Source of the DNA: Spiroplasma tabanidicola
GTDB lineage: Bacteria; Bacillota_I; Bacilli_A; Mycoplasmatales; Mycoplasmataceae
Direction: 5' to 3'
DNA: 64,000 bases
Assembly (NCBI RefSeq): GCF_009730595.1
Contig: NZ_CP046276.1
Location: 496,001 to 560,000, forward strand
Positions within the stretch are counted from its first letter, which is position 1; every line of letters starts with the position of its first letter. A model generated the notes under the pieces. The model was not told the DNA's origin, did no database searches, and saw nothing but the letters and a program-made list of their open reading frames with translations. Shown here piece by piece: positions 13,107-64,000 of this stretch. Both the position numbers and the translations under genes were made by a program.

Positions 13107-14243
13107 ATGATTTGATGAAAAAACGCTAAAAATAAATTTGAAGCTGATAAAATAGGAAAAGAAGAAGAACAACTTAAAGCTATAAATAACTATCTATGTA
13201 CTGTAATTAAAGATTCAAAAAATTTAAGTTTTTTAATTGGTTCAGGTTGTTCTCAACCAACAATACCTTTATTATCGAATATTTTTAAAGATATATTAGA
13301 AAAATTTAAAGAAGATTTTGATTTAGTTAAAGAATCATATAATTTTGAAGAAAATAAAAATTTAGAGGCTTTTCTAAATTGATTAAATAGTGCTATTGTT
13401 TTTTTTAGAAATAATGAAGAAAGAAAAACATTTTATAAAAATTTATTTGATAATTGTAAACAAATGATTTTGGATAAAATAAAAGAAACTTTTGAAAATG
13501 AAAATATTTATTTAGAAAATTTACAATTATATATAAACTTTTATAATATTTTATTAAAAATACGCTCGTTAAAGGAAATATCTTCTATTCCATATAAAAA
13601 TCCTATAAATATTTTTACAACAAACTATGATATTTTTAATGAAATAGCGATGGAAAAAACTGCAATAAAGTATACAACAGGCTTTGATGGTGATATAGAT
13701 AGAAAATTTTCAATAGAAAATTTTAGGTTTAGAATAGTTGATGATGAAAATAGATTTAAAGAAAAATGAGATCCTTTTAATGCTTATATAAAGTTATTCA
13801 AGATACACGGTTCTATAAATTGAGTGCAAAATGATAATTCTGAAGATATAAATTTATCTGAATCATGATCAAAAAACTACTCAAATGTACTGATTTATCC
13901 AACTTTAAATAAAAATAACGAAACTCTTCTTAAACCATATGCGGAGTTATTTAGAGAGTTTTCAATACAATTACAAAAAAATAATACCACCTTGGTAATA
14001 ATGGGTTATGGTTTTCCTGATGAACACATAAATCAAATAATTTTACAGGCTTTATCTAGTAATTCTTTTACATTGATTGTTTTTGCAGATATTGATGGAG
14101 ACGAAGACCCAGTCAAAAAATTTTTTGATAAAACTAAAAATTATAATAATGTTGTTTTTATTGGAGGTAAATATGAAAATAATTTATTAATAAATCATTT
14201 TGAAAATATCATAAAAACATTAGAGAAAAATATAGGAGAATAA
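13107..14243 (+). CDS. SIR2-family NADase, effector of SIR2-HerA defence module
   Basis: This 378-residue protein shows the SIR2 fold in order: FLIGSGCSQPTIP (NAD-binding GxGxS loop, about residue 44), FTTNYDIFNE (TNYD, about 172), FKIHGSINW (catalytic His at about 234), and IMGYGFPDEHIN (about 298). The insertion-rich middle is typical of the prokaryotic defence SIR2 proteins (SIR2_2/DUF4917-like), not of deacetylase sirtuins. The TTG-started HerA gene follows after four bases. Members of this pair degrade NAD or cut DNA on phage infection; that role is inferred here. The ATG at 13107 follows a GAAAG site and begins MIWWKNAK, with two TGA Trp codons, so misreading TGA hides the start. Confidence 0.88.
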
Positions 14244-14247
14244 GTAA

Positions 14248-16026
14248 TTGAGTTTATTGATTGGAAAAATTATAAATGTATATACAGATAGAATTGGTAT
14301 AGAATTAATAGAATCATCTGATTTTTCATATAATTATAACGGTGATTCTTACACGTTGAATGGTATAAATGATTTTATAACGGTTCAAAATGAATATAAT
14401 AATAAATGTTTATTAAGAATTACTAGTATTTACCAAAAGCAAAAAGCATTGGATAGAAGTGAAAACTCAAAGTTCACAGATATAAATATAGCAGATGCTT
14501 GTCCGGTTGGCGAGTGAACTAATGATGTTTTTAAGTTTGGAATAACCAAATATCCAATGGTTGGTAAAAATGTTTATTTAGCAAACAAAGGGGAAATATC
14601 AAGTATTTTTGAAAGTGCAGATATCAAAAATTCTATATACTTTGGCGATATTGTTAATTTAGAATATATAAAATTTAAAATTAATTTAAAAACACTTTTT
14701 TCAAATCATATGGCAATTATTGGAAATTCTGGATCTGGAAAATCAACAACAATAAAAGAAATAATTAACTCCTTAGTTAATGATTTAGAAGATTCTAATA
14801 AGAGCATAAATAGAAAAAATATCAATTTTATTTTATTTGATGTTCATAATGAATACTCTAATTTTATGCAAACTAATTATCAAATTATTGATGCTAAAAA
14901 AGACATTTCATTGCCATTAGAAAATTTAAATCTTGCAGACTGAATTAATTTAGTTTTACCGTCAGTTTCAATTCAGCTTCCTATACTTAAGAACTCACTA
15001 AAGTTTGCTCATTTGTATGAAGATGTAAAGTTTGATATGAACTCATTATTAGCTTATATTGTCAAAGAACTATATATTAATGTTCAAACTGATTCTGTTG
15101 CGAAAAGGCAAAAAATAGTTGGTATTTGTGAAAAAATTAATAATCCTGATCTTTTAAAATTGCTAGATTCATATAATGTTAGGTTTGGAAATTTTGAGGA
15201 TAAAGATAGCGAAAAAAATTTTAAAGAAAAATTATCAAATTTAATAAAAAATAATAACTTTGAAAGAATAATTATTGATTCATTAGATAAAATAAAAAAT
15301 ATCGAGTCATTAAAAGAAGGGATTGAGCTTGCACTACTTTGGGAAGAAAGAAAGGGTAATAATCAAGTAAGACCTAATTGTATAACTATGATGACTAGAG
15401 TAGAAAATATAATATCGGAATATAAAGATAACTTATTCTCTTCAAATATTAATAAAATTGAAAATTATAAGAAAATATATGATAATGAAGAAATTTTAAC
15501 AGTTGTTAATGTCAGCGAACTTGAGGATGATGATCTTAGATTTTTTGCAAATTTCTTTTTGAATCAAGTTTTCAATAACAAAAAAACTAAAAATGATTTA
15601 AAAACTTATAATATAATTTTTGATGAGGCTCATAGATATATAAAAGAAGATAATAACAATGAATTAACTAAAAGTTTTAGTATATTTGAAAAGATAGCAA
15701 AAGAAGGTAGAAAATTTGGAATATATCTAACCATCTCAAGTCAGCGCCCTGGTGAGTTATCAAAAACTGTCTTATCACAATGCAATAATTTTATAATGCA
15801 TAGAATTAAAAGTGGTATTGATTTAGAAAATATTAAAAAAAGTAACCCTTTTATTGATGAATATCAAATAAATAGGTTATCTGTACTTCCAACCGGAACG
15901 GCTGTGCTAGCTGGAGAATCATTTTTAATACCTTTAGAAGTAAAAATAGTTAAAAAAGAAGAAAAAAAAGATGAATCTGCAAGTCCGAATCTATTGGATG
16001 TATGATTTGAAAAAAAAGAAATTTAA
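14248..16026 (+). CDS. HerA-type hexameric ATPase of SIR2-HerA defence module
   Basis: This 592-residue protein has an N-terminal HAS-barrel-like beta region (residues 1-130). Walker A GNSGSGKSTT is at about 159 and Walker B NIIFDEAHRYI at about 456. Next comes ISSQRPGELSKTVLSQCNNF, the HerA/FtsK-family sensor and motif region with its conserved SQRP. A helical insertion of about 200 residues separates the Walker motifs. The TTG start is chosen because AGGAG lies 9 bases upstream and four bases separate it from the sir2 stop. HerA oligomerises and assembles with SIR2 in known systems. No nuclease NurA accompanies it, which argues for the defence role rather than DNA end resection. Confidence 0.87.
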
Positions 16027-45936: not shown

Positions 45937-46689
45937 ATGAAAAAAATTGATGTATATTTGAAAAAAGAAGAAAATTTTGATATCCAAAAAAATAACACTA
46001 TTTGCATTGGATTTTTTGACGGTATTCATCGAGCTCACCAAAAAATAATGCAAAAAACTCAACAAATTGCACAAGAAAATAATGAAATATTTTCAGTAAT
46101 GACTTTTAATCAAAAAGTAAGTGAGTTTTTAGCGGGGCAATTTCATAATTTACAATCAAGAAAAATAAAATATCGTATGTTAGTTGATTTATTTGATCCA
46201 GAATTTTTATTTGAAATTCAAGTAAACGAAAATACTATAGCTGTTTCAAAACAAGATTTTATTGATTATTTAAAAAATAAATTAAATGTAAAGCATTTAG
46301 TTGTCGGAAGTGATTTTACCTTTGGGCACTATAAAGAAGGAAGAGTAGAAGACTTGTATGAAGCATTTGGAAAAGAAAATGTTTTTGTGTTTTCAAGAAT
46401 TGAAAAATATTCTTCAAGTAATTTAAAACAATTATTAGCTGAAGGAAAAATTGAATTATTAAATGAAAAAATGGGATATATTTATAAACTTGATTTAAAA
46501 AAAATCCCAGAAAAAGCAAATGCTTTTAAAATTTCAAAAAGTAAAGCAACTATAAAAGATGGTTTTTATAGAGTAATTTATAATGATGTAGTTTGTAAAG
46601 TTCAATTTGAAAGTAATATAGCTTATTTTCCAGATAACTTTGTAAGTCCAAGTGAAATAAGTATTGAATTAGTTCAAAGAGTTAATTAA
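45937..46689 (+). CDS. ribF: FAD synthetase/riboflavin kinase, reduced C-terminal domain
   Basis: This 250-residue protein carries the adenylyltransferase domain: CIGFFDGIHRAHQKIM (nucleotidyltransferase HxxH; the usual GHQ Gly is Ala here), VVGSDFTFGHYKEG, and SSSNLKQLLAEGKI. The riboflavin kinase half is much shorter than the usual 120 residues and lacks an obvious PxTAN motif. FMN formation by this protein is therefore uncertain, while FAD synthesis is likely. It follows truB by one base and ends in a terminator. Confidence 0.88.
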   Translation: MKKIDVYLKKEENFDIQKNNTICIGFFDGIHRAHQKIMQKTQQIAQENNEIFSVMTFNQKVSEFLAGQFHNLQSRKIKYRMLVDLFDPEFLFEIQVNENTIAVSKQDFIDYLKNKLNVKHLVVGSDFTFGHYKEGRVEDLYEAFGKENVFVFSRIEKYSSSNLKQLLAEGKIELLNEKMGYIYKLDLKKIPEKANAFKISKSKATIKDGFYRVIYNDVVCKVQFESNIAYFPDNFVSPSEISIELVQRVN

Positions 46690-46778: not shown

Positions 46779-47573
46779 ATGAATGAGATAAAAATTGAAA
46801 ATCCAACAAGTGAAGGTAAAGAAAGTAAAAAGTTTTTAACTTTATTAAAAGTCAATTGCTTTATTATAAGTCTTATTGGTTTAGGATTATTTATATTTGC
46901 AATTATATACGGAAGAGTATTGATAGGAAATTACAAACGTGAAGAAAATGTTTTAGATCCACAATGATATTATTATGTAATTTTTTTCTTTGGAGTATAT
47001 TATTTTGCATCTCAAATTTCTTTAGCGATTGGAATTGAAAAAATTTTAAAAAGAATAAATTATTCTTTATATCAACGAAAAGTTTTTATATTATGTAATT
47101 TATTAGTAATGGTTTTAACAGTTTTAACATCATCTACATTATATTTATTTTTAAAATATAATAAAGCTCTTGAAAAAGAAGGTTATGATGATAAAGAACA
47201 ATTTGATTATTATGTTAATACAAAAATTAATCCTAGATTTAATATGAAAATCTTAGTTACAACAACTTTTGGTATAACTATATTTTTTTCATTATTCGTT
47301 GGATTTTTAATTTATGCATATTTGAAGAATATTGATTTTATTAGTTGAAATTTTACTACTGTAATAATTGGGTCATATTCATTTATGATTGTTTTTGGAA
47401 GTAGTACAATTTGTGCAAGATTTTTATGTGACACAAATGCATTTTTAAATAGTGATAACAAAATTGATACAAAATGATTTGTTATAAGTTCTATTCCAAT
47501 AATTGGACCAATAACTTTATTGATTTATTATAGTAAGAAGAAAATAGTTAATAAAAGAGATAAAGTAATTTAG
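46779..47573 (+). CDS. Four-helix membrane protein, paralog 1 of a tandem family
   Basis: This 264-residue protein has a hydrophilic N-terminus of about 25 residues and four or five hydrophobic segments. Family landmarks shared by the next three loci are W-YYY after helix 1, YSLYQRKVFILCNLLV, LKYNKALEKEGYDDKEQFDYY and the end motif DNKIDTKWFVISSIPIIGP-LLIYY (fragments: DNKIDTKW, IPIIGPITLLIYY). The function is unknown. It has its own promoter and terminator. Confidence 0.8.
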
Positions 47574-47580
47574 TTTTTTT

Positions 47581-47605
47581 CAGACTTTTAAAGTCTGTTT
47601 TTTTT
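47581..47605 (+). terminator. Terminator after membrane paralog 1
   Basis: CAGACTT pairs with AAGTCTG around TTA, with eight T residues after it. Confidence 0.8.
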
Positions 47606-47668
47606 ATGAATATTATTATTTGATAAATTAAGTATGATTGTTATAATTAAAATTAAAGGTATATATAA

Positions 47669-48448
47669 ATGAGTCAATATAAAGAATTAAATAGCAATAA
47701 TAAAAATAAATCATTAGTAACTTTATTAATGATATTTAGTATTTTATTTTTATTATGTGGGATTGCATTAATTTTAGTTTCAATTATTTCTGGAAAGATT
47801 TTTACAAAAATTTTTAATCGCAATGGTAATGCTACTATTCCGAATTGATATTATTATTTAATATTTGATATAGGTTTTTTTAATATTATTTTTAATTTAA
47901 TTTTTATTTTATATATAAGAAATGGTTTAAACAATAGTAAATATAGTTTATATCAGCAAAAAATATATTTGCTTGCTAATCTATTGATATTTATTATTGC
48001 AGTTTTTCCAATTTTTATAGTATCAATATATTTAAAATATATTGACCTTTTAAAAAAAGAAAGTCTTGAAGATGAAGAAAAATTTGATAAATATATAAAT
48101 TCAAATGCTATTCCAAAAAATAAAAATAAAAAAATAATGTTATATTTATTTATTTTTTTAATAATTTTAGTCAATTTTTTATTAATTATGTTTTTAAATT
48201 CTGATTATAAAGAATCTAAAGTCGAAGAAAAGCGTTTGATATTAGCTTTAAATTTTATTGTATTTATCTTTTTTTGCATCATTTTATTGATAAGTCCTAA
48301 ATTATTATGTGATACAAATATTTATTTAAATGAAAACAAACAAATTAAAAAGAAATGATTAATTATTGGTATGATTCCTATAATTGGATCATTCATTTTA
48401 CTGATTTATTTTTACAATAAAAAAGATAAAAAACTTCATAATAGTTAA
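47669..48448 (+). CDS. Four-helix membrane protein, paralog 2
   Basis: This 259-residue protein has the same landmarks as paralog 1: NWYYYLIFD, YSLYQQKIYLLANLLIF, LKYIDLLKKESLEDEEKFDKY, CDTNIYLNENKQIKKKW and IPIIGSFILLIYF. It is intact and has its own TATAAT at 47642, with AAAGG before the ATG. The sequence has diverged strongly from paralog 1, so the duplication is not recent. Function unknown. Confidence 0.8.
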
Positions 48449-48500
48449 TAATTAAATTCATTATTAAATAATAAGTATATTAACTAATGTATAATAAAAT

Positions 48501-49309
<809 letters not shown>

Positions 49310-49325
49310 CAGAGAAGAAAGAAAA

Positions 49326-50107
49326 ATGAGTGAAAAAGAAATGAAAAGTAATGATAATTTAAAAACCAAAAATAGCTTAGAAAGTAAAAAAATATTACAT
49401 TTTTTTATCAATTTATTCTACATTACTAATGATTGCTGGAATATCTATTTTTGCAGCGGTCATAGTTTGTAGCAATTTTTTAGTAATATCTGCTAAAGCT
49501 GGTCAAAACATAAATCATGTTTAATGATATTAATATATTCTTTTTTATACTGGAATATATTTTATAGTTACTCATTTTACATATTTATTTTTTACAAAAT
49601 TTATTATAAAAAAAACACATCACTCACTATATCGATTAAAAATCTTTGTAATAGCAAATGCTTTTTTAATGGTAATAACTATTTTACCAACATTTAGTAT
49701 GTTATTATTTATCAAATATGCAGATGCTCTTAAAAAAGAAGGTTTTGATGATAATGATAGATATGAATATTATATAAATAATAAATTAAACAAAAATTCA
49801 TTTATTGGAGGTCGAACTTGTTCTGTAATTGTGTTTATGATTATGACAATAGGTCTTGTTGTATGATTTTTTTGCTTTAATAACTCAACAAATGATACAA
49901 AGTTAATGGCTATAAAATATTGTGTTACTGGGTTTTTTGTATTTTTAAATCTTGTTACAACTGCCGGGCTTGGCGCTACATTTTTAAGCAATTCAAAAAT
50001 CTATTTAAATGAAGAAAAAAGTTGATAGAAAATGATTGATATGTGCTTGAATACCAATTTTAAGTCCATTTATTATTGGAACTTGTTTTTTGGTAAGAAA
50101 ATAAAAA
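49326..50107 (+). pseudogene. Membrane protein paralog 4, frameshifted
   Basis: An ATG with a hydrophilic start (MSEKEMKSNDNLKTKNS) runs into a TAG after about 50 codons. A shifted frame gives the expected first helix (TLLMIAGISIFAAVIVC). The family motif LKKEGFDDNDRYEYYI appears from 49669, and the end (LSNSKIYLNEEKS) is followed by a stop before the usual IPIIG motif, which occurs in yet another frame. Three or more lesions are visible. Confidence 0.75.
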
Positions 50108-50176: not shown

Positions 50177-52513
50177 ATGGATGATAAAATTTTAAAAAAA
50201 ACTATTTCTATAAAAACTCTTAGATTATGAGGAAAAAACCCAAGATATACCGATCTTGTTTTTATAAATATTGAAAAAATCGGATCAGAAGACTTTATAA
50301 TTAATGAAAATTTAATGGGTGTAGAAAGTGATATGTATAAAGAAAATTATAGGGAAAATATGAAAAAACTTTTAGCACCAGCCGATTCTCCAAAACTCAC
50401 TTATGACTTAATTGAATCAATGATGGAAGGTTTCGATTCATCTATTGATGATATGTTTGTTGTAAGACCGGTATGGTTGGATAATTATAATTATAGTAAA
50501 TCAAAAGATATTTATTATGTTGTTGAAGGAAATAGAAGACTTCTAGTAATTGATTTATTAAGTGACAGAAATAGTTCTAGAAAGTATTTGAAAGAATTTA
50601 CTGAAAAGCTAGAAAAAGATTTAAATAAAACTAATTTTAATAATGATCAAAAAAAAGAGACTATCCTAAAAATTAAAATAAATAATTTTAAAAAAATTTT
50701 AGCAAAGTGTGAAGAATATGATAAGAATCCCAAAATTGGATTAAGTATATCTTGCAAAGTATTAGATTATAATTTTTTCATTTCAAAAACAGGTATGGAG
50801 CAATTAAATAAAGTTTTGAATTCTAGACACTTTGGCAAGAAAAAGGGAAAAATGAATTGACCAAGAGGTCTTATATTAAAAAAAATTTATTCATTAATAG
50901 TAAAGTTTGTTATAGAAGCGAAAAATAGAAGTGAAAATATTGATTGAAAAGTAATAAACAAAAAAATTGAAAATACTATTGGTAAAACAATAACAAGTTC
51001 TGATTTAAATAATGCTATTTTTTTTGTTGAGTGTATAAATGCATGAAATGCGGATAAAAAAGATAATGAAAAAATAAAATTTGGTGATACAGAAAATGGG
51101 GATATTGATACTTCTGAAATAATTTTATATAATGATGAAAATCAAGAACTTTTACAAATAGACACAGAAGATATAAGTGGTTTTTCTGTTTCTGCTCTTG
51201 AGTTGGCAAAAACAAACTTAATAATACTAGATAAAGATTTAACTAAAAAATCATTATCAAAAGTTATAAAGTTTGTTTATGAAGACAAAGAAAAAATAAG
51301 TGATAACTCAAGTATTATCAAAATAAAAAGAAAAACGGAAAATACTTTTATAGATAATCATGACGTAGTACAAAAAATTTTAAAAGAGATTACAAATGCC
51401 GTTTATAACAAAGAAATCACAACTAGATCATCTAAAAATAGTGATATAACGGAATCCGGTAAAAAAATTCGTCAACTAATTTTTCCTTTGGGATATGATT
51501 CCGAGGAACTTAAAAATAATATTTATAACATATCTTTGGAACAAATTGGAAGCATAAATCCTGAATTAATAGAAGATGTTAAAATAAAAGTAATAGTTAC
51601 AGATTTTCAAGATATAGATAGTACTTTAGAAAATAATTCGCTTAAATATAAATATGATAACTCTGAAAATAATTTAATATCAAATATAAAATATATTTGA
51701 CTAAAAGAATTTGAATTAATTAAAAAATTTAAAAATCAATTGTTAGTTTCTGATATATCTGTAATTATTTTTAGCTCATTACTTAGAACTACTATAGAAG
51801 TTATAAATTGTTATATATTTTCTAAACTATGCATTTTTTACTTAGAAAATATTGAAAAGTTTGAAAAAAAAGAATTTGATGAAAAAATTTGTAATATAGT
51901 GAGTGAAAATATAATAGATACAAAATTAAATGAAATTTTAAGTAAAATACCTTTCGAAACAGAAGAAAATCAGATTACAAATGGTAAAGATTGGTTCAAT
52001 AATTTTAAAAAATTAAACGAAAATGATAAAAATATTTTCATAGAAGACGTAAGAAAAATATTTGACTGTTTTATGGGTTGTTATGTAGAAAATACATTTC
52101 ATCCAGAATCAAAAATTCTAACAAAAGAGGATATTATGTCTAATAAAGAGTTTTTAAATAAGTATTTTTTTGGTACCAGTTATAATGGGAGTAATATTTT
52201 AAATGAAGTATATAAAAAAATTACCACAAAACAAGAGTGAGATGATTTCATAAACTTTATTATAACTGAAAAAATTTTAGGAATAGAAGATAGAAAGGTT
52301 ATCGAATGTTTTGAATTGATTAAATTTTATTATGATAATAAAATTTTATGATTTGATGACGAATATAAAAAAAACTCATTAATTGTAAATAGGCTAATTC
52401 ATAAATCAATGTTTGCGCAAAGAGTATATGAACTTAGTGGGATTATTTATTTGGACTCAATAACTGATTTTTTAAAAACTATATTAAAAAAAGTTCTTAA
52501 TTTTGTTAATTAA
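50177..52513 (+). CDS. Large protein with N-terminal ParB/sulfiredoxin-like domain
   Basis: This 778-residue protein was read through several TGA codons. Residues about 10-125 show the ParB-like pattern: LRLWGKNPRYTD at the start, a helical stretch, VRPVWLDN and YYVVEGNRRLLVIDLL, matching NPR and (V/I)xEGNRRLxAxxLL. The remaining 650 residues are helical and charged, with no motif I can name. They lack an obvious helix-turn-helix or CTPase pair as in chromosomal ParB. A GAGGCG ribosome site precedes the ATG. The methyltransferase starts 31 bases after its stop, so the two are probably one transcript. A modification or defence role is inferred from this pairing. Confidence 0.7.
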
Positions 52514-52544
52514 ATTAATATTTTTACGATGTAAGGAGAAAAAA

Positions 52545-53759
52545 ATGCCAAATGATAACAATGAAGTTATATATGAAAAAATAAGAAAAATATTTAAAAA
52601 TAAGAAAAAAGTTTTAAAAAAAGATATAACTTGAAAAAATTATTCAAGGATGTGAGGAGATAAAACACATAGAATTTGCTCATATGTGGCAATGTTCCCA
52701 CCGAGGCTAGCGAACTACTTTATAAAAAAATTTTCAAAAGAAAACGATTATGTATTTGATACTTTTTCGGGTAGAGGAACAACTATACTTGAATCAAGAT
52801 TGTTAAAAAGAAAAGCTTTTGGAATTGATTTAAATCCTTTTGCATATGTATTGTCAAGGGCGAAGTCCAAAAGTTACTCGTGAGAAATTATCGAAAATGA
52901 AATAAATATTTGAAAGAGAAATTATGATAGTTTTAATGAAGCGATTATATTGGATGAAAATTTAAAAGTATTTTATAGTGATGAAAATTTGAGGCAACTA
53001 ACATTTATTAAATATAAATATGGAAGAAATTGAAACAACATAAATGATGTTGATAATTATATATTAGCAATAGTTTTGGGATTAATGCATGGTCCAGCCA
53101 AGAAAAACGGAGAAAGTATATATTTCTCGTTAAGTATGAGTAATTGTATTTCGATGTCAAAAAATTATGTTATAAAATATGCTAAAAAACATGATTTAAT
53201 TAAGCCTGTTGATGATATTTTTGAAAAAATAAAAAAAAGAGCGAAATACATTATTGGAAGTTCTCAATATTCTAATGAAGAGGCAAAAATCGTATATGGT
53301 AATAGTTTGAATATAACAAATTATATAGATGCAAAACCAAAACTTATTTTTACATCTCCCCCATATCTTAATATAATTAACTACACTCAACAAAACTGAA
53401 TTAAAATGTGACTTTTGGGTTTTGAGGATAAAATTGATAATAATAATATAGGATTGGATGATAAACATAATCTAACAAATTATGTTAATTTTATGATAAA
53501 TTATATGACTTCTATAAGCAAAATAATGGATAAAAACTCTACTCTTGTTATAGTTATTGGTGAAGTTTTAAGAATAAATACAATATATTCTTTTGATGAT
53601 ATGTGAAAAGAAAAAATAAGTAAAATTATTAAAAATCTAAAACTTATAGAAAAATATACAGATCCAATCGATCAAAACAAAAAAGCTACAAATTCAATGG
53701 GCCAAAGAGCTGGAAAATCGACAAGAATTGACAAAATTTATGTATTTAAAAAAATATAA
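52545..53759 (+). CDS. DNA amino-methyltransferase (N6-A or N4-C)
   Basis: This 404-residue protein has ICSYVAMFPPRLANYFI, motif I VFDTFSGRGTTILES at about residue 70, FGIDLNPFAYVLSRAK, and catalytic motif IV TSPPYLNIINYTQQNW at about 269. The C-terminal QRAGKSTRIDKIYVF resembles the ends of family members. Motif I before SPPY gives an alpha-like order. S/TSPPY occurs in both N4-cytosine and N6-adenine enzymes, so the modified base is not certain. An AAGGAGA site precedes the ATG. No nuclease gene follows; rpsO is next. Confidence 0.88.
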
Positions 53760-53964: not shown

Positions 53965-54231
53965 ATGGTTTCAAATAAGGAAAAAACCGATATTGTTAAG
54001 CAATTTGGAAGTAACGATAAAGATACTGGAAAAGCAGAAGTGCAAATCGCATTACTTACAAGTGATATTAAAAACTTGCAAGAACATTCACAAAAACATA
54101 AAAAAGACTATTCATCAATTAGAAGTTTAGTTAAAAAAGTTGCTCAAAGAAGACACTTATTAAATTACTTACTTAAAAAAGATGTTAATAGATATAAAGC
54201 AGTTATTGAAAAATTAGGGATTAGAAAATAG
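53965..54231 (+). CDS. rpsO: 30S ribosomal protein S15
   Basis: This 88-residue protein is the standard length. Markers are FGSNDKDTGKAEVQIALLT, HSQKHKKDYSSIRSL and VAQRRHLLNYLLKKD, including the HxxDxxS-type rRNA-binding loop. It binds 16S rRNA at the three-way junction h20-h22. It is monocistronic with its own terminator, an island of housekeeping between modification genes. Confidence 0.98.
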   Translation: MVSNKEKTDIVKQFGSNDKDTGKAEVQIALLTSDIKNLQEHSQKHKKDYSSIRSLVKKVAQRRHLLNYLLKKDVNRYKAVIEKLGIRK

Positions 54232-55361: not shown

Positions 55362-55390
55362 ATGTAAAAATATATTGAAATTTTTACATT
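55362..55390 (-). terminator. Terminator of the Sau3AI-like gene
   Basis: AATGTAAAAAT and ATTTTTACATT pair around a short AT loop directly after the minus-strand stop. Confidence 0.6.
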
Positions 55391-56765
55391 ATTTTATTTT
55401 TTTAAATAAGTTTTTATTTATTCACCATGTTTGTCTTGTTATATTAAGGCTACTTTTATTGTATACATTTATTCCTTTACTAGCATGTGGTCTTAAATGT
55501 ACTAATAAATCATCTCCTTTTTGAATAAAATTTGGTTTTATTCTATCAGATTGATCTAAGTTCATTATTCTTAATATTTCATCTTTAGTTAATTCATAAA
55601 CTTTTTCTAAAGTTTCAATATCATCATTTGAAAAACTATATTCATAAATGCTTTCAATAGTTTTATTTTCTTTATTTATCCCAATAACAATATATTTAAA
55701 CAAAACTACTTTACTATAGAATTCACTATCATAAAAGTTATTATTTATAGTATCATAAATATTTAAATCATGTTGTGCACCTATTTCTTCTTGTATTTTA
55801 TTGTTTTTTAAAACTTTACAAACTATTTTATAATCAGTGCTAATTAAATAGTCAAAAAGCAAGTTGTTATTTAATTTTAAATACTCTTTAAAAGCATTTC
55901 TATGAGGACTTTTACCAAAAGCATTCCAGTTTCCATAATTACTTAAATCTGTGCCAATTAATTTTTTTAGTTCTGAAATTACTTCATTATAATCGTAGGC
56001 AACTTTATATTCTTTTTTGTATTCACTAAATAACTCAAAAATTTCTTTTTGATCTCTGTATTGAGTTATTAAACTATTTATAAATGGTATCTTAAACGAA
56101 AATGCTCTTTGCTTAGCTAATATTTTATTATGTGGTTGATTTCTAACGCTATTAGCAGAACTACCTTTTGTACAAGCTGCTAAAAGATCTGTATCTTTTT
56201 CTGATAACTCGTGTGCTAAACCATCATTTACTTTGTTTTTAATAATTTCTCAATCTTTTTTGATTATTTCATATTGTTCATTTTGTTTTATATTATAAAT
56301 AAATGCATCTATTACAAATCATTCTTCTTTGGGTAAGTTAAAATCATGTAAATATACAATAACTAAGGTTATTTTATTCTTTAAAAATAAACTACTTTCT
56401 TCAAATTTTGTTTCTTTATCTAAGATTTCATAATTAATTAAATTTAAAACCATTCTTTCTTTAGGAGCAACTTTATATTTTTTGTTATTTATTTTATAGA
56501 TATGAGTTTTAGTCTCATTTGCTAAATCAGTTTGTTTTACAGGTATTACTTTTAGTTCTATATTTAAATCTAAAAAATCAGGTTCTTTTTTACTGTTTCT
56601 TGATATATTAAAAAGCTTTTCTTGAATTAAATTACCTATACTTCCTTTATCTTTTTGATTAAAATCTATATCTCATAAGTCTTTAAATTTTATTCCAATA
56701 ATTTTTCTAGCTTTATCAAGAATTTCTTGTATTTTTAATAGTTTATTACTCTGATCATTATTCAT
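55389..56765 (-). CDS. Sau3AI/MutH-family type II restriction endonuclease
   Basis: This 458-residue protein is close to the roughly 490 of Sau3AI. The N-terminal MutH-like domain has KDKGSIGNLIQEKLF and DLNIELKVIPV, supplying the Glu-x-Lys catalytic pair near residue 68. LAHELSEKDTDLLAACTKG follows. The second domain has GNWNAFGKSPHRNAF and LLVHLRPHASKGI, as in Sau3AI. Such enzymes cut at GATC; that specificity is inferred from family. It is divergent from the C5-methyltransferase across 50 bases, a typical restriction-modification layout. The ATG has only a weak AGGT site. Confidence 0.85.
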
Positions 56766-56815
56766 TTTTTTACCTGCCTATGTTAATATTATATTTGTTT
56801 TAGAATGAGGTTTGC

Positions 56816-57973
56816 ATGAAAAAAATTACTGTTGTTGAATTATTTGCTGGAGTTGGTGGTTTTAGATTAGGTTTAGAAAGAGCTAATAAAAATGCATTTG
56901 ATTTTGTGTTTGTAAATCAATGAGAACCTAATGAAAAAATGCAACATGCTTTTAATTGTTATGTTAATAATTTTGGTAATGAAAATGCAATAAATGAAAA
57001 CATAGTTGATGCTAAAAACAAAATACCTAATAATCCTGATTTGATAGTAGGGGGTTTTCCTTGCCAAGATTATTCAGTTGCAGCTACAAATGCTAAAGGA
57101 ATAGAAGGTAAAAAAGGTGTATTGTGATGAGAAATAAGTTGAATAATAGAAAATAAAAATCCTAGATTTTTATTATTAGAGAATGTGGATAGATTATTAA
57201 AGTCTCCATCATCTCTTAGAGGTAGAGACTTTGCTATTATGTTAATAAGACTTCATAAATTAGGTTATAACGCTGAATGACAAGTTATTAACGCTGCAGA
57301 CTATGGGATGGTTCAAAGACGTAGAAGAATTTTTATTTTTATTTGAAAACAAAGTGAATCTAAATATAAAAAGTCAATATTTGAAAAGCATTTTAAAAGT
57401 ACACCTAAAATTGAACCTGTTGAGTTTGATTTAATAGATGAATATCCAAATGAAATTGATGCTTCAAATAATTATAAAAAAGGAAAGTTTTTAAATAAAG
57501 GTACTTTTATAAATGGTATTGTTAGGATGTACGATTATAATCCTGTTTTTAATGGTAAAAAAAAGATATTAAATGATGTTTTATTAGAAAATTTTGATAA
57601 AAAATATTTTTTATCAAATGAACAAATTGAAAAAATGAAATATCTAAAAGGAAAAAAATCAATCGAAAGAATAAGACCTAATGGAGAAAAGTATTTTTAT
57701 ACTGAGGGATCTATGAGTTTTTATGATGATATAAATAAGCAAGCAAGAACTATTATAACTAGCGAAACATCTATGAATAGATCTACGCATATTATAAAAG
57801 TAAAAAATAAATATAGATTTATTACACCAATTGAAGCTGAAAGAATTAATGGATTTCCCGACAATTGAACAGAAACAATAGCATCTGAAAAGAAAAGATA
57901 TTTTTGTATGGGTAATGCATTAGTTATTGAAATAATAGAAAGATTAGCAAAAAGTATTATTGATTTATTTTAA
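56816..57973 (+). CDS. DNA cytosine-C5 methyltransferase of the Sau3AI-like system
   Basis: This 385-residue protein has all main motifs: I VVELFAGVGGFRLGLE, IV GGFPCQDYSVA (catalytic Cys at about 82), VI FLLLENVDRLL, VIII YGMVQRRRRIFIF, and IX/X near ITPIEAERINGFPDNW and MGNALVIEI. The recognition domain lies at residues about 190-310. Together with the divergent Sau3AI-like nuclease it forms a type II system, presumably methylating the cytosine of GATC. The ATG follows a GAGGT site. Trp codons are TGA. Confidence 0.92.
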
Positions 57974-58183: not shown

Positions 58184-59374
58184 ATGGGAAATAAAAGTGT
58201 ATTAAAAAATACGTTAATATAAAAAAAAGCTAATAATTTAGAAAATGAAAACATTTTTGATGAAAATGATGTTGAATTTATAGATGAAGAATTAGAAGCA
58301 GATTTAATTTTTGACCATGATAAAAGAAAGATTTATAGAGAAAGACAAGATAAATCTTTAAAGGATATTATATCTATGATTGAAAGAGAAGAAATTATAT
58401 TACAACCTGATTTTCAAAGAAAGTATGTATGAAATGAAACTAATGCTTCAAAATTTATTGAGTCTTTATTATTGAATATACCTATACCTAATATTTTTGT
58501 TTATGAAAATAATTTGGAAAATTGAGAAGTTATAGACGGTCAACAGAGATTAACAACGATTTATAAGTTTTTTAACAATGAATTTAATCTAAAAAACTTA
58601 AACGCTATAAGTGAACTAAATGGCAAAACTTATGAAGATTTTTCTGATGTAATAAAAAGAAAATTTAATAATGTAATTTTGCAATTTACAATATTGGGAA
58701 AAGAAACTTCAGAGTTTTTAAAATTTGATATATTTTCAAGATTAAATAAAGGTTCTACAATGTTGAATGCACAAGAATTAAGAAATTGTTTATATAAAGG
58801 TGCTTTTAAAGATCTTTTGAAAGAGCTATCAACATATTTGCAAATAAACTATAGATCACTTTTAAGTGAGAATATGAGAAATAGAATGTTGGATGAAGAA
58901 TTAATATTAAGGTTCTTTTATATTGATGATTTATATAATAAAAACAATAATTTTAATAATTATAAAAATATTTCAATTGGTATGAATGAATTTATGAATG
59001 AGGCAAATAAACTTAGTTATGATAAAATAGATGAATTAAAAAGTATTTTCATAGATTCAATAAAAAAAGTAGCAGAATTGTTTAAAGAAAAAGTATTCAA
59101 AGTATACGAAAAAAATATTAATTCAAATCAAAAAAACTGAGGATCAAAAATTAATAGAGGTGTTTTTGAAATAGAAATGTCAGTTTTAAGAAAATATGAT
59201 AGTTTAAAACTTTTAAAAAAAGAAAAAGTTATTATTGAAAAACTTGCAGATATTATGTTAAATGACAATGATTTTAGCAATTCTCTAAAAATACATACAA
59301 ATAATAAAAATAGTTTAATAAAAAGATTTGAAACTTTTGAAAAACTTATTAAAGGAATAATGGAAAGTGATTAA
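58184..59374 (+). CDS. DUF262 (GmrS-like) protein with early in-frame stop
   Basis: The frame opens at an ATG with AGGAG but meets TAA at 58220, after 12 codons, then stays open to 59374. Downstream come the DUF262 motifs: IILQPDFQRKYVW (about codon 70), EVIDGQQRLTTIYKF (about 115) and FSRLNKGSTMLNAQELRN (about 185). An in-frame ATG at 58376 with AAAGGA 11 bases upstream would give about 332 residues and keep the catalytic motifs. The gene may thus be nonsense-mutated, restarted or read through. No DUF1524 nuclease half is present. The HEPN gene follows by one base. Confidence 0.7.
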
Positions 59375-59375
59375 A

Positions 59376-60062
59376 ATGTCTATTGTTTTTGAAAGTGAAC
59401 TTACATTTACAGATTATATTAAGCAAAAAATAAAAATAATTGAAAATGAAAATGACAATGAGAAAGTAAATGTTTTCTTGATTGAATTAATAATATTAGT
59501 CTTTTCTTATTTTGAACATGATTTAAAAAAACACATTGTTGATAATTTTGATAATTTAGAGTGTGCGGATGAGGATTTCAAAAACTTTATACTTCAAAGA
59601 TTAATTTTTTTTCAAGAAAAAGAAAGTATCATTATTAAAATAGAGGATTATTATTCTGACAAAGAAGACTTTCAAAAGTTTAATGAAATGATAAAATTAT
59701 GTTCCAAGTTTTTTGATAAAGACTTCTCATATGTAAAAAAATACTTAAAAGATGACTTTGTTCATTTGCTAACACAAAATAAAATAAGTAAACTTATAGA
59801 AAATGCAAAAAAAATTAAAAAATTAAAGATTGAATTAGGTGTAGAAGATGATTGAAGTCAAGTTGTAAATATTGAAGTTACAAGTATAGAAGATTTTTAT
59901 AAAAATGAATTGTCGAATTATAGGAATAAAGCCGTACATAATTTACAAATAGATGATAATTTTTATAATAATATTTATAAGCAAAGTAAATTAGAGAGTT
60001 GATTTTTAAAAGTTTTAGAAGTACTAAATATAATAAAAAATAATTTTTTTATAAGTAAATAA
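59376..60062 (+). CDS. HEPN-family protein, partner of DUF262
   Basis: This 228-residue all-helical protein starts one base after the DUF262 stop. Near the C-terminus, YRNKAVHNLQ supplies the R-x4-H signature of HEPN ribonucleases (Arg183, His188). Layout and position next to DUF262 fit the MAE_28990/MAE_18760-like HEPN proteins of defence loci. RNA cleavage as an abortive or toxic effector is inferred. No domain other than HEPN was recognised. Confidence 0.65.
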
Positions 60063-60648: not shown

Positions 60649-61968
60649 ATGAAAAAAATAAAAGTTTTTGAAACCTTTGCAGGAATAGGAGCTCAAAGAA
60701 AAGCTTTAGATATTTTAAAACAAAATAATATATTGGATTACGAAATAGTTGCAACTAGTGAATGAGACATTTGAGCTAACATAAGTTATAATTCTATACA
60801 TCATAATAATAAGAATATAGCCAAAAATTTATCCGACGAAGAAATTAATAGTTTTTTATCTAACTTTACACATTCTAATGATTCAAAAAAGCCTATGAAT
60901 ATAGAAACTTTGTTTAAAAAACCGAGATTAGTAAGAGAACTATTATATAGCTCATATAAGAATTCTAATAATCAAGGTAGTATATTAAGTATTGATGAAA
61001 AAAAATTGTTAGAAAAAATTAAAAAATTCGATCTATTAACTTACTCATTTCCTTGTCAAGATTTATCTGCGGCTGGCAGTATACATGGATTTAATAAAGG
61101 CATGAAAAAAGGCTCTGGAACTAGAAGTGGTTTGTTGTGAGAGATTGAAAGAATACTTTCAAAACTAAAAAAACATAATAGATTGCCGAAATATTTACTT
61201 TTAGAAAATGTTAAAAATATGATATCTCAAAAGCATAAAGATGATTATTTAGACTGATTAAAATTTTTAAAAAAAATTGGATACAATACACAAACATATG
61301 TTCTAAACGCTAGAGATTATGGAGTTCCACAAAATCGCGAAAGAGTTTATGCTCTAAGTGTTTTGAGTCCAAAAAATAATTTATTTTTGGATACATATAC
61401 AACTACAAAAAAAATTATCGAAAAGAATATACCTAAGGATATAACGAAAGAATACAATTTAAATTTTAAAATGTCTGAGGTATTGAAAATTGATTATAAA
61501 ATAAAAAAATATTATGATGAAGCATTAAATTCCATTCCTAATAAAACTATAAGTAGAAAAAAAATGTTTTATGATAACAAAAAATTATATAGTGAAAATT
61601 TAAATACTTTAAATAAAATACCTAAAAATAATAAATGTTATAATTACAATGAGTATTTTGAAAAAAACGGTATTTTTTTAAATATTTGTAGAACAATTAC
61701 AACAAAGCAAGATAGAAATCCTAATGCCGGAGTAATTGATTTAAAAAAAACCGCTTTGGAAAATATTGATAAGAGTAAAGCTAATTATAGACTTTTAACA
61801 ACAAGAGAAGTTTTTTCTTTAATGGGGTTTTTTGAAGAAGATTTTGAAAAAGTGAAAAATCTAAATCTTTTAAGCAAGGCAATTTTATATAGACAAGCTG
61901 GAAATTCAATAGTTGTAAATGTTCTTGTGGTAATTTTTTATATGTTAGCAAAAATGAAAGAAGGGTAG
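60649..61968 (+). CDS. M.SssI-like DNA cytosine-C5 methyltransferase
   Basis: This 439-residue protein has motif I VFETFAGIGAQRKALDIL, IV LLTYSFPCQDLSAAG (catalytic Cys at about 136), GSGTRSGLLWEIERIL, VI KYLLLENVKNMI, VIII DYGVPQNRERVYAL and X QAGNSIVVNVL. The wording FAGIGAQRKAL, DLLTYSFPCQDLS and GSGTRSGLLWEIER is, from memory, nearly that of M.SssI, the CpG enzyme of Spiroplasma. Motif VIII and the recognition domain differ, so CpG specificity cannot be assumed. Three bases separate it from the next gene. Confidence 0.9.
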
Positions 61969-61971
61969 ACT

Positions 61972-64000
61972 ATGGTAAGTAAAAACTTTGAGTTTATAAA
62001 AAATTATAATAAATTTTTATGGGTTTATGAATCTATTTCTAACATTGAAGATAATATAGTAGAAGCTGGATCTTATGGTGTTCTAGCAGAGTCATCAAAA
62101 TTATTAGAAAGATTATTTAAGCAAATTACTAAAGATGAAAATTCAAAAAGATCTTTGTACGTTTTAAGAAGAGACTTTGCAATGTTACTTCAAGAAGAAT
62201 ATCAAATTGAAATACCAAATAATGTTCAAGCATCTATAAATTTTATTATTAGAGATAGAAATAGTAATTTTCATGATAGTAATGAAATTGATTATGGTGA
62301 ATCCTCACAAACTTTTTCGACTAAATTAAATTACTTAATGTGCTTAAGAAAAATTTTGCATTTTTGTTTATATACATTAGAAGATAAAGAAATAAAAATT
62401 GATTCTTTTGTTGATGATATATACTATAAGAAACTTAATAAGACCAAATATTTAGAAGATGCAAAAGAATTTAAATATGAAAATAACCAAATTAGATTAG
62501 AAAAAATCTCAATAGGTGAATTAATTTTAAGTGATAAAAATAATTTCTTTATTCCTTCATACCAAAGAGATTATAGGTGAGGGGAAGAAGAATGCCAAGA
62601 ATTAATAAATCAATTGATTTCTAAATTTAGAACTCAAGAACAAATATATTTTGGTGCTTTAGCTTGTAGAATTCTAAATAGCGATATAAATGAAGATGTT
62701 GAAATTGAAAATATTAATTTGATAAACGAAGAAAAAAATATTAGGTTAATAGATGGTCAACAAAGAGTTACTACCTCTTTGATATTATTCAAAGCTTTTT
62801 TTGACTTATTTAAACAAAAAAAATATGAAGATTTCTTGAATCCTTTATTTAAAATTCCTAAAGAGTTGCAAGATTTATTTGAATATAAAGAAAATAATGA
62901 ATATAGTGATCGTAGAATAAGAAAAAAGTTTGTAAATTTAACTGCTAATAACGATAGTGGTCAAAATGGTATTTATGTAGTTTTAAAGGGATTCAAAAAT
63001 CAAAATGCTTTTAAAGATGAATTAAATTTATATCAAAAAGCCGGTGTTATAAGTAATTATGAATTTTTTTATAGAGAACTGAATTCTTATGATATAGAAA
63101 CTTTATTATTGATTTACAACTATTACTATAATAATTTCATATTATCTTGCATTGTCTTTGATGATGATAATACTAACGAAATGGAAATATTTGAAAATTT
63201 AAATTCAAAAGGTAAAGAACTAGATACATTTGATATGATTAAAAATTATATTTTCAATATGCTTGATGACAAAATATTTAATCTACATACAAGTGATGTT
63301 ACAAAGGAATTAAATAAATATTTCAATTTAGATAATGTTACAAAATACAAGGGTAATAAAGAAGAACAATCTAAAAGATATGAAACATTTCTTTTTAATT
63401 ATTTAAATTATAAAAATACTATTAGTCCATTTTTTAAAGGTAAAATTCAACAAAATAAAAAAAGTATTTTGAAAGTTTTTAAAGAGCTCCATTATAGACA
63501 TAATATTGATTTAAATGATTACAAATCTATTTGCAATGATTTAGGAAGATATTTTTATATTTATAAAAATATATATATAACAAGCTCTTATATTGAAAAA
63601 AATAGTGAATATTATAACTTTTTTGAAGAACTGACAAATATAACTCATAAAGATTTCACTATATTATTATTTTATTTATTTGATGTATATAGTTCATATT
63701 CATGAAATTCTTATGAAAGAAGATTATATTTTCAATATGAAGAATATTTAAAAGCATGCTTATTTGAAATCGAAAAATGAGTTGTAATGCTTTTACAAGT
63801 TAAAGGTACAGGACAATCTTTTAAAAACTCGGTTTATGGAAAACTTATAAAGTTTTTAAAAACATACGAAAATTATAGTACTTTCAAAACAAATTTACCA
63901 AACCTTATAAAAGATTGATTTAGTGCAAAAATTGCTCCTAATAAAGAAAATGAAAAATTACTTATATCTATGGAACACACATTACCGCCAAAACAACAAG
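61972..64000 (+). CDS. HEPN-DUF262-DUF1524 (GmrSD-type) restriction protein, 3' end outside window
   Basis: At least 676 residues are visible. The N-terminal 140 are helical, with FIIRDRNSNFHDS giving an R-x4-H HEPN/DUF4145-like signature at about residue 96. DUF262 follows: FIPSYQRDYRWGEEE at about 193, RLIDGQQRVTTSLIL at about 260, and IFENLNSKGKELDTFDMIKNY at about 407. The last residues, SMEHTLPPKQQ, match the EHxxP motif of the DUF1524 His-Me nuclease. Such GmrSD proteins cut modified DNA using NTP. Coupling to a C5-methyltransferase three bases upstream suggests one operon. Confidence 0.85.

What the first reader, a model, noticed from the sequence alone, without database searches (positions are those of the whole stretch)
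50177..53759. ParB-fold giant protein coupled to a lone DNA amino-methyltransferase: candidate undescribed modification or defence system
Seen: a 778-residue protein with an N-terminal NPR/EGNRRL ParB-like domain and 650 unassigned residues sits 31 bases before a TSPPY methyltransferase on one strand, with a new ribosome site and no nuclease nearby. Known: chromosomal ParB is about 300 residues and pairs with ParA, which is absent here. Inference: the ParB-like part may bind or act on DNA or nucleotides as the effector or sensor, with the methyltransferase marking self DNA. The large C-terminal part is the unknown.
Basis: partly seen in the sequence, partly recalled or inferred. Interest (0 to 1): 0.78.

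Follow-up and report, generated by a model that had tools for sequence, protein, structure and literature searches.

The report
ParB-like/methyltransferase defence gene pair
A bacterium without a cell wall carries a mobile two-gene unit, a large protein with a nucleotide-binding ParB-type head and an unknown tail next to a DNA-methylating enzyme, which looks like a new variant of a known anti-virus defence (PD-λ-5) in which a different kind of methylating enzyme marks the cell's own DNA.

Summary
Read with genetic code 4, a 778-aa protein (A) lies 31 bp upstream of a TSPPY-type DNA methyltransferase (M). "No nuclease nearby" is wrong: a Sau3AI-family R-M pair starts 1.2 kb past the rpsO gene that follows M. 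A and M form a conserved two-gene unit. In all 320 held genomes of the order, 27 have an A homologue and 24 of these have M adjacent. In 20 intact pairs gene order is A-M (9), M-A (10) or divergent (1), so linkage outlasts rearrangement. A's N-terminus is a ParB/CTPase-type domain: its motifs are kept, and the model of a relative aligns to ParB and KorB (Z 7.0-8.3). A is homologous over that domain to PD-Lambda-5_A, half of the proven anti-phage system PD-λ-5, whose partner is a D12 adenine methylase. M belongs to another class, so this is a variant, not a PD-λ-5 member. The C-terminal region is a helical bundle with invariant T-R, R and N-x3-H residues, faintly shared with PD-Lambda-5_A. The unit is patchy and inserted at ribF-rpsO, nearly empty in 13 of 17 genus-mates. 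Best reading: M protects self DNA; A senses unprotected DNA and acts through its tail. The biochemistry is untested.

The parts
50177..52513 (+). gene A: 778-aa ParB-like protein (code 4)
   Evidence: homologues with the same neighbour in 24 genomes
50198..50869 (+). ParB-CTPase-type domain of A, about residues 8-231 (NPR 21-23; EGNRR 117-121 = P motif GxxR; H218..G224..W228)
   Evidence: hhalign to PD-Lambda-5_A 98.9%, E=1.7e-17; model of family member L031 aligns to KorB Z 8.3 and ParB Z 7.0
50525..50539 (+). codons of EGNRR (nucleotide-binding P motif)
   Evidence: EGNRR in 21 of 22 aligned family members, DGNRR in the other
51419..51427 (+). codons of the conserved T-T-R motif (residues 415-417) in the middle region of A
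   Evidence: T[TS]R-like motif also visible in PD-Lambda-5_A proteins
51671..52510 (+). C-terminal helical region of A (about residues 499-778) with invariant R537 (LLRTTIE) and N738-x3-H742 (VNRLIHK); putative effector
   Evidence: hhalign of C-terminal profiles 24.9 against shuffled maximum 12.3
52533..52538 (+). AAGGAG ribosome-binding site of M
   Evidence: sequence
52545..53759 (+). gene M: 404-aa amino-methyltransferase, PF01555 class, motif order X-I-TRD-IV (FSGRGTT 74-80, TSPPY 270-274), predicted N4-cytosine or N6-adenine
   Evidence: Pfam N6_N4_Mtase E=1.5e-17, PADLOC MTase_II E=6.8e-34, PDB N4-C MTases, alignment A4
53965..54231 (+). rpsO, right border of the variable insertion site ribF-rpsO (ribF ends at 46689)
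   Evidence: gap 124-233 bp in 13 of 17 same-genus genomes fetched, 7.3 kb here

Best explanation
A and M are a two-gene, horizontally moving defence unit that works like PD-λ-5. M methylates a fixed sequence in the host chromosome. A uses its ParB/CTPase-type N-terminal domain as a nucleotide-gated DNA sensor or clamp. On DNA that lacks M's mark, or when M is inhibited, the conserved C-terminal domain (T-R, R, N-x3-H) is released to destroy nucleic acid, most likely killing or arresting the infected cell. Shown here: the gene pair, its conservation and linkage, the ParB-type fold, homology to PD-Lambda-5_A, the methyltransferase class, and the insertion site. Inferred: nucleotide binding, DNA sensing, the effector activity and its control by methylation.
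For: Linkage in 24 of 27 genomes, kept through three gene arrangements; among the 12 genomes found only by the later A profile, 9 have M adjacent. A and M distances correlate across 20 pairs (r=0.51, 0 of 2000 permutations). N-terminal homology to PD-Lambda-5_A; that family sits beside D12 methylases scoring E<=1e-111 as PD-Lambda-5_B in the three loci scanned and beside adenine methylases in phages and a plasmid. PD-λ-5 protects E. coli from phages and was cloned in a host lacking the mrr region (PMC9519451). ParB fold and intact GxxR motif (GxxR arginine needed for NTP binding, PMC12704722). Decay is asymmetric: M intact with A broken in G450 and G468, M without A in G467 and G484. The one A without adjacent M (G560) lost the T-R, R and N-x3-H residues but kept the nucleotide motifs. 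Neighbours include R-M, GmrSD_N and SIR2-type genes.
Against: No nuclease or toxin fold was identified in the C-terminus. Sequence similarity to PD-Lambda-5_A is strong only in the ParB part, and the C-terminal signal is weak. The HEPN motif R-x4-6-H is absent. No anti-phage test exists for this variant. G560 carries a prophage-type M 14 kb away, so its natural knock-out is not clean.
Confidence: 0.6

Rival explanations
1. A is a DNA-binding or regulatory partner of M (a specificity, loading or repressor subunit, as proposed for DndB), and the pair is an epigenetic modification or regulation unit without a killing effector.
For: Strict pairing with M and a ParB-type NTP switch with no recognised nuclease; DndB is discussed as a regulator (PMC10853773).
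Against: M persists intact without A (G467, G484) or with A broken (G450, G468), so M does not seem to need A. Distribution is patchy, in variable islands beside defence genes. Homologous A proteins occur in the tested defence system PD-λ-5 and with other methylase classes.
Confidence: 0.2
2. The pair is mainly a selfish addiction module (post-segregational killing) on mobile islands: M is the antidote, A the toxin, and phage defence is secondary.
For: Patchy mobile distribution, asymmetric decay, loss of conserved C-terminal residues in the one A without adjacent M.
Against: Defence-island neighbours and the anti-phage activity of PD-λ-5; ordinary R-M systems also behave as addiction modules, so this overlaps with the main reading.
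Confidence: 0.15
3. A is a chromosome or plasmid partition ParB that lies next to M by chance.
For: The ParB-type fold.
Against: No adjacent parA, linkage to M in 24 of 27 genomes, 400-550 extra residues, absent from nearly all congeners.
Confidence: 0.02

Closest known systems
PD-λ-5 (PADLOC PD-Lambda-5_A/B; Vassallo et al. 2022, PMC9519451)
   Same: Two adjacent genes; A protein with the same ParB-type domain (NPR, [DE]GNRR, H-x-x-G-W), a T[TS]R-like motif and C-terminal R-x3-E and N-x3-H; a single DNA methyltransferase partner; mobile, prophage or island locations.
   Different: The partner here is a PF01555 N4/N6 amino-methyltransferase with a TSPPY motif, not the D12-class adenine methylase; A is 585-778 aa instead of about 390-550; gene order is variable; seen here only in mollicutes.
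P2-like phage Wphi gp98/gp96/Mth locus
   Same: ParB-type protein (gp98) related to A beside a lone DNA methyltransferase (HMM E=2.3e-17).
   Different: The methyltransferase is m5C and the second protein gp96 is separate; gp98 lacks the C-terminal domain.
HEPN-ParB fusions and HEPN/ParB/methylase operons (Anantharaman et al. 2013, PMC3710099)
   Same: ParB-type domain coupled to an all-helical C-terminal domain with conserved Arg and His, and methylase neighbours.
   Different: Canonical R-x4-6-H is absent here; membership in HEPN not shown.
GmrSD type IV restriction (GmrSD_N / DUF262)
   Same: ParB/Srx-type NTP-binding domain in a defence protein.
   Different: DGQQR replaced by EGNRR, no HNH (GmrD) domain, and a dedicated methyltransferase is present.
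Chromosomal ParB and KorB
   Same: N-terminal NTP-binding fold; structural match.
   Different: No ParA, a different C-terminus, linked to M.

Membership tests
PD-λ-5 | A protein homologous to PD-Lambda-5_A | tested here: met
   PADLOC hits in most family members (10 of 13 to PDLC04013; window E=1.2e-6 to PDLC04000); hhalign 98.9%, E=1.7e-17 over 143 columns. ParB part only.
PD-λ-5 | full-length match to PD-Lambda-5_A including C-terminus | tested here: inconclusive
   C-terminal profile score 24.9 against shuffled maximum 12.3 but low probability; motifs collinear
PD-λ-5 | B partner is a D12-class adenine methylase (PD-Lambda-5_B) | tested here: not met
   M matches PF01555 and MTase_II; PD-Lambda-5_B not among the 25 best of 43 PADLOC hits; true loci have D12 genes
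PD-λ-5 | anti-phage activity | not testable with these tools
   needs phage challenge
Type II restriction-modification | DNA methyltransferase with catalytic motifs | tested here: met
   FSGRGTT and TSPPY invariant or nearly so in 17 members
Type II restriction-modification | cognate sequence-specific endonuclease | tested here: inconclusive
   no nuclease family recognised in A; fold search uninformative for the C-terminus
ParB-CTPase fold | Box II P motif GxxR and ParB fold | tested here: met
   G118-N-R-R121 kept in all 22 members; KorB Z 8.3 over 188 residues at 5.6 A, ParB Z 7.0 over 90 residues at 2.7 A
ParB-CTPase fold | nucleotide binding | not testable with these tools
   needs a binding assay
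HEPN superfamily | R-x4-6-H motif | tested here: not met
   conserved motif is N-x3-H without Arg at the canonical place; a separate conserved Arg sits in an upstream helix
HEPN superfamily | four-helix HEPN fold | tested here: inconclusive
   helical C-terminus; only generic helical matches
ParABS partition | adjacent parA | tested here: not met
   no ParA-like ORF next to the pair among the listed window ORFs
GmrSD type IV | DGQQR motif and HNH domain | tested here: not met
   EGNRR instead; no Pfam GmrSD_N or HNH match in A

The most novel reading that the evidence does not exclude
A general, undescribed class of 'methylation-gated ParB-switch' immunity: one ParB-type NTP-switch protein family is paired with interchangeable methyltransferases (D12 adenine, TSPPY amino, and, in Wphi, m5C), so that the switch reads absence of the partner's mark and fires a tail domain that is a new nucleic-acid-degrading or translation-blocking effector with a T-R / R / N-x3-H active site.
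Probability: 0.22. Interest if true: 0.72.

Novelty: new variant of a known kind. Interest (0 to 1): 0.5.

Why it matters
[quoted passage not shown] Finding the same ParB-type protein with a different methylase class suggests that the methylase is a replaceable self-marker and the ParB-type protein is the true immune factor, and it pinpoints the residues to mutate. It also places a ParB/CTPase-type switch, best known from chromosome segregation, in mollicute immunity, in small genomes where few defences are described.

Tried and rejected
Direct scans of genome contigs and viral contigs with P0001, A1 and A2 found no relatives; the seed peptides were probably too lineage-specific. tblastn of A in plasmids and phages: none. 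Pfam, NCBIfam, PHROGs and PDB sequence searches of A: nothing significant; the weak Rep_fac_C hit (E=0.17) is noise. The first structure (window protein, pLDDT 63.9) was too poor in the C-terminus and gave only noise. Foldseek with the better model gave only generic helical proteins in PDB; the BFVD list included low-ranking ParB and GmrSD entries without significance. Rhodopsin and lyase rows for the C-terminus were rejected as generic bundles. A HEPN assignment was considered and not adopted. The idea that the convergent Mycoplasma phage protein next to an M homologue (L027) is a headless A was tested by HMM and rejected. M homologues on Deferribacter and Halorarius plasmids sit with DUF87/HerA-type genes (and NurA in Deferribacter), a different context.

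Full report
Observation. The window (496001-560000 of a 1.284 Mb single-contig genome) reads with genetic code 4. ORF A (50177-52513, 778 aa) and ORF M (52545-53759, 404 aa) are intact with TGA=Trp. M starts 31 bases after A and has its own AAGGAG. The statement that no nuclease is nearby is wrong: rpsO (53965-54231) follows, then a Sau3AI-family endonuclease (NCBIfam E=2.6e-66), an m5C methyltransferase, a GmrSD_N gene called NsnA by PADLOC, a second m5C methyltransferase and another ORF with a GmrSD_N-like DGQQR motif.

Homologues and linkage. A search of the family found four further genomes with A, and each has the same methyltransferase immediately downstream. Searching with the methyltransferase alignment brought more loci, most with a ParB-like neighbour of 585-721 aa. 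A 13-member A profile was then run over all 320 held genomes of the order: 27 have A and 24 of them have M adjacent. The first 13 members were partly found through M, which biases that count; of the 12 genomes not found before, 9 have M adjacent. The three exceptions are a 126-aa gene fragment (G567), a contig end (G499, whose M fragment lies at the end of another contig) and G560. In the 20 intact pairs the order is A-M in 9, M-A in 10 and divergent in one (and the coordinates). Tree distances of A and M correlate (r=0.51; 0 of 2000 permutations), although some branches disagree and M of two family-f26 genomes falls among family-f1 sequences, so the unit or its parts have moved between families.

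Decay pattern. M is intact where A is broken (G450, G468) or absent (G467, G484); G015 and G593 have both genes damaged. Frameshifts in single assemblies could be sequencing errors. The only full-length A without adjacent M, G560, has changed TTR to ISK, the otherwise invariant R to K and N-x3-H to N-x3-N, while keeping NPR, DGNRR and H-G-W. It does have a prophage-type M 14 kb away, so this is suggestive only, and it is one case.

What A is. Pfam and NCBIfam give nothing, but PADLOC PD-Lambda-5_A models hit the window protein (E=1.2e-6) and most of the 13 family members. Profile-profile comparison with ten PD-Lambda-5_A proteins gives 98.9% probability, E=1.7e-17 over the ParB part; the A profile finds Wphi gp98 and Vibrio phage ValB1MD-2 proteins. 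The model of the compact member L031 (22 sequences, pLDDT 82.7) aligns residues 1-331 to KorB (Z 8.3, 5.6 A over 188 residues) and 1-167 to ParB bound to CDP (Z 7.0, 2.7 A over 90), ahead of the generic rows. These Z values are moderate; the sequence motifs and the profile match to PD-Lambda-5_A carry the assignment together with them. The P motif GxxR, whose arginine is needed for NTP binding in other ParB-fold proteins (PMC12704722), is G118-R121 here and kept throughout. The C-terminal half is helical and unassigned. Its conserved residues (T-R 416-417, R537, N738, H742) have counterparts in PD-Lambda-5_A, and the C-terminal profiles score 24.9 against a maximum of 12.3 for 60 column-shuffled controls, with a low formal probability. 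I treat common ancestry of the C-terminal domain as likely but not proven. The HEPN R-x4-6-H motif is not met.

What M is. PF01555 amino-methyltransferase (E=1.5e-17) with motif I before motif IV, closest in PDB to a putative modification methylase and N4-cytosine methyltransferases. TSPPY is typical of N4-cytosine enzymes (general knowledge), so m4C is the better guess but N6-adenine is not excluded. It is not the D12 class that defines PD-Lambda-5_B.

Relation to known systems. PD-λ-5 was isolated in E. coli by selection against lambda, protected against nearly all phages tested, was cloned in a host deleted for the mrr region, and was described as a compact R-M plus Abi system (PMC9519451). 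The loci seen here in Firmicutes, a Kosakonia plasmid and several phages pair its A protein with a D12 or annotated adenine methylase, and Wphi pairs a related ParB-type protein with an m5C enzyme and a separate gp96. In ValB1MD-2 the ParB part and the C-terminal part are separate genes beside the methylase, which shows the two-part make-up of A. The window system is therefore a variant in which the methylase class differs. HEPN/ParB/methylase associations were noted by Anantharaman et al. 2013 (PMC3710099).

Mobility and context. ribF and rpsO are 124-233 bp apart in 13 of 17 same-genus genomes fetched; here 7.3 kb separates them. The same neighbourhoods recur: rpsO also in G663, the rplA-rplJ-rplL region in G059 and G662, guaA in G014 and G027. 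Other defence-type genes lie near several copies (GmrSD_N-like in G014, m5C methyltransferase-like in G597, G627 and G662).

Mechanism. Best supported: M marks self; A is a nucleotide-gated sensor whose tail is the effector. Linkage, fold, homology and mobility are shown; gating by methylation, NTP use and the effector's chemistry are inferred. Confidence 0.6.

Noticed in passing
window 55389-57973: Complete Sau3AI-family type II R-M pair (endonuclease on -, m5C methyltransferase on +) next to rpsO.
   Followed up: no
window 58376-60062: GmrSD_N protein (PADLOC NsnA E=4e-80, also PD-T4-2_A) overlapping a 231-aa protein with a canonical HEPN-like RNKAVH motif but no Pfam match.
   Followed up: no
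window 60649-63999: Second m5C methyltransferase followed by a large ORF with a GmrSD_N-like DGQQR motif that runs off the window; a similar methyltransferase start is seen next to rpsO in G037 (L126).
   Followed up: no
window 13107-16026: SIR2 and HerA pair, strong PADLOC matches (E=4e-85 and 4e-97): a second defence system in the same window.
   Followed up: no
window 46779-50028: Four tandem related membrane proteins (264, 259, 197, 119 aa) between ribF and A, not seen next to A in the other loci; origin and role unknown.
   Followed up: no
L145/L146 (Wphi, P2-like phage): gp98 (ParB-type) + gp96 + Mth (m5C methylase) looks like a further ParB/methylase defence cassette at a phage genome end; gp96 has a GDGGLDIIAW..QCG stretch that may be a restriction-enzyme core.
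   Followed up: partly
L149 2438-4877 (Vibrio phage ValB1MD-2): PD-Lambda-5_A split into two genes (ParB head, C-terminal tail) in front of a DNA adenine methylase: evidence for modular function.
   Followed up: partly
L098 4297-6093 (G560): A-type protein without adjacent M that has lost the T-R, R and N-x3-H residues but kept the nucleotide-binding motifs.
   Followed up: yes
L027/L028 and L153 (Mycoplasma phage MGyu-2021a type prophages): Phage-borne M homologues near large unrelated proteins on the other strand; possibly prophage defence or protective methylation.
   Followed up: partly
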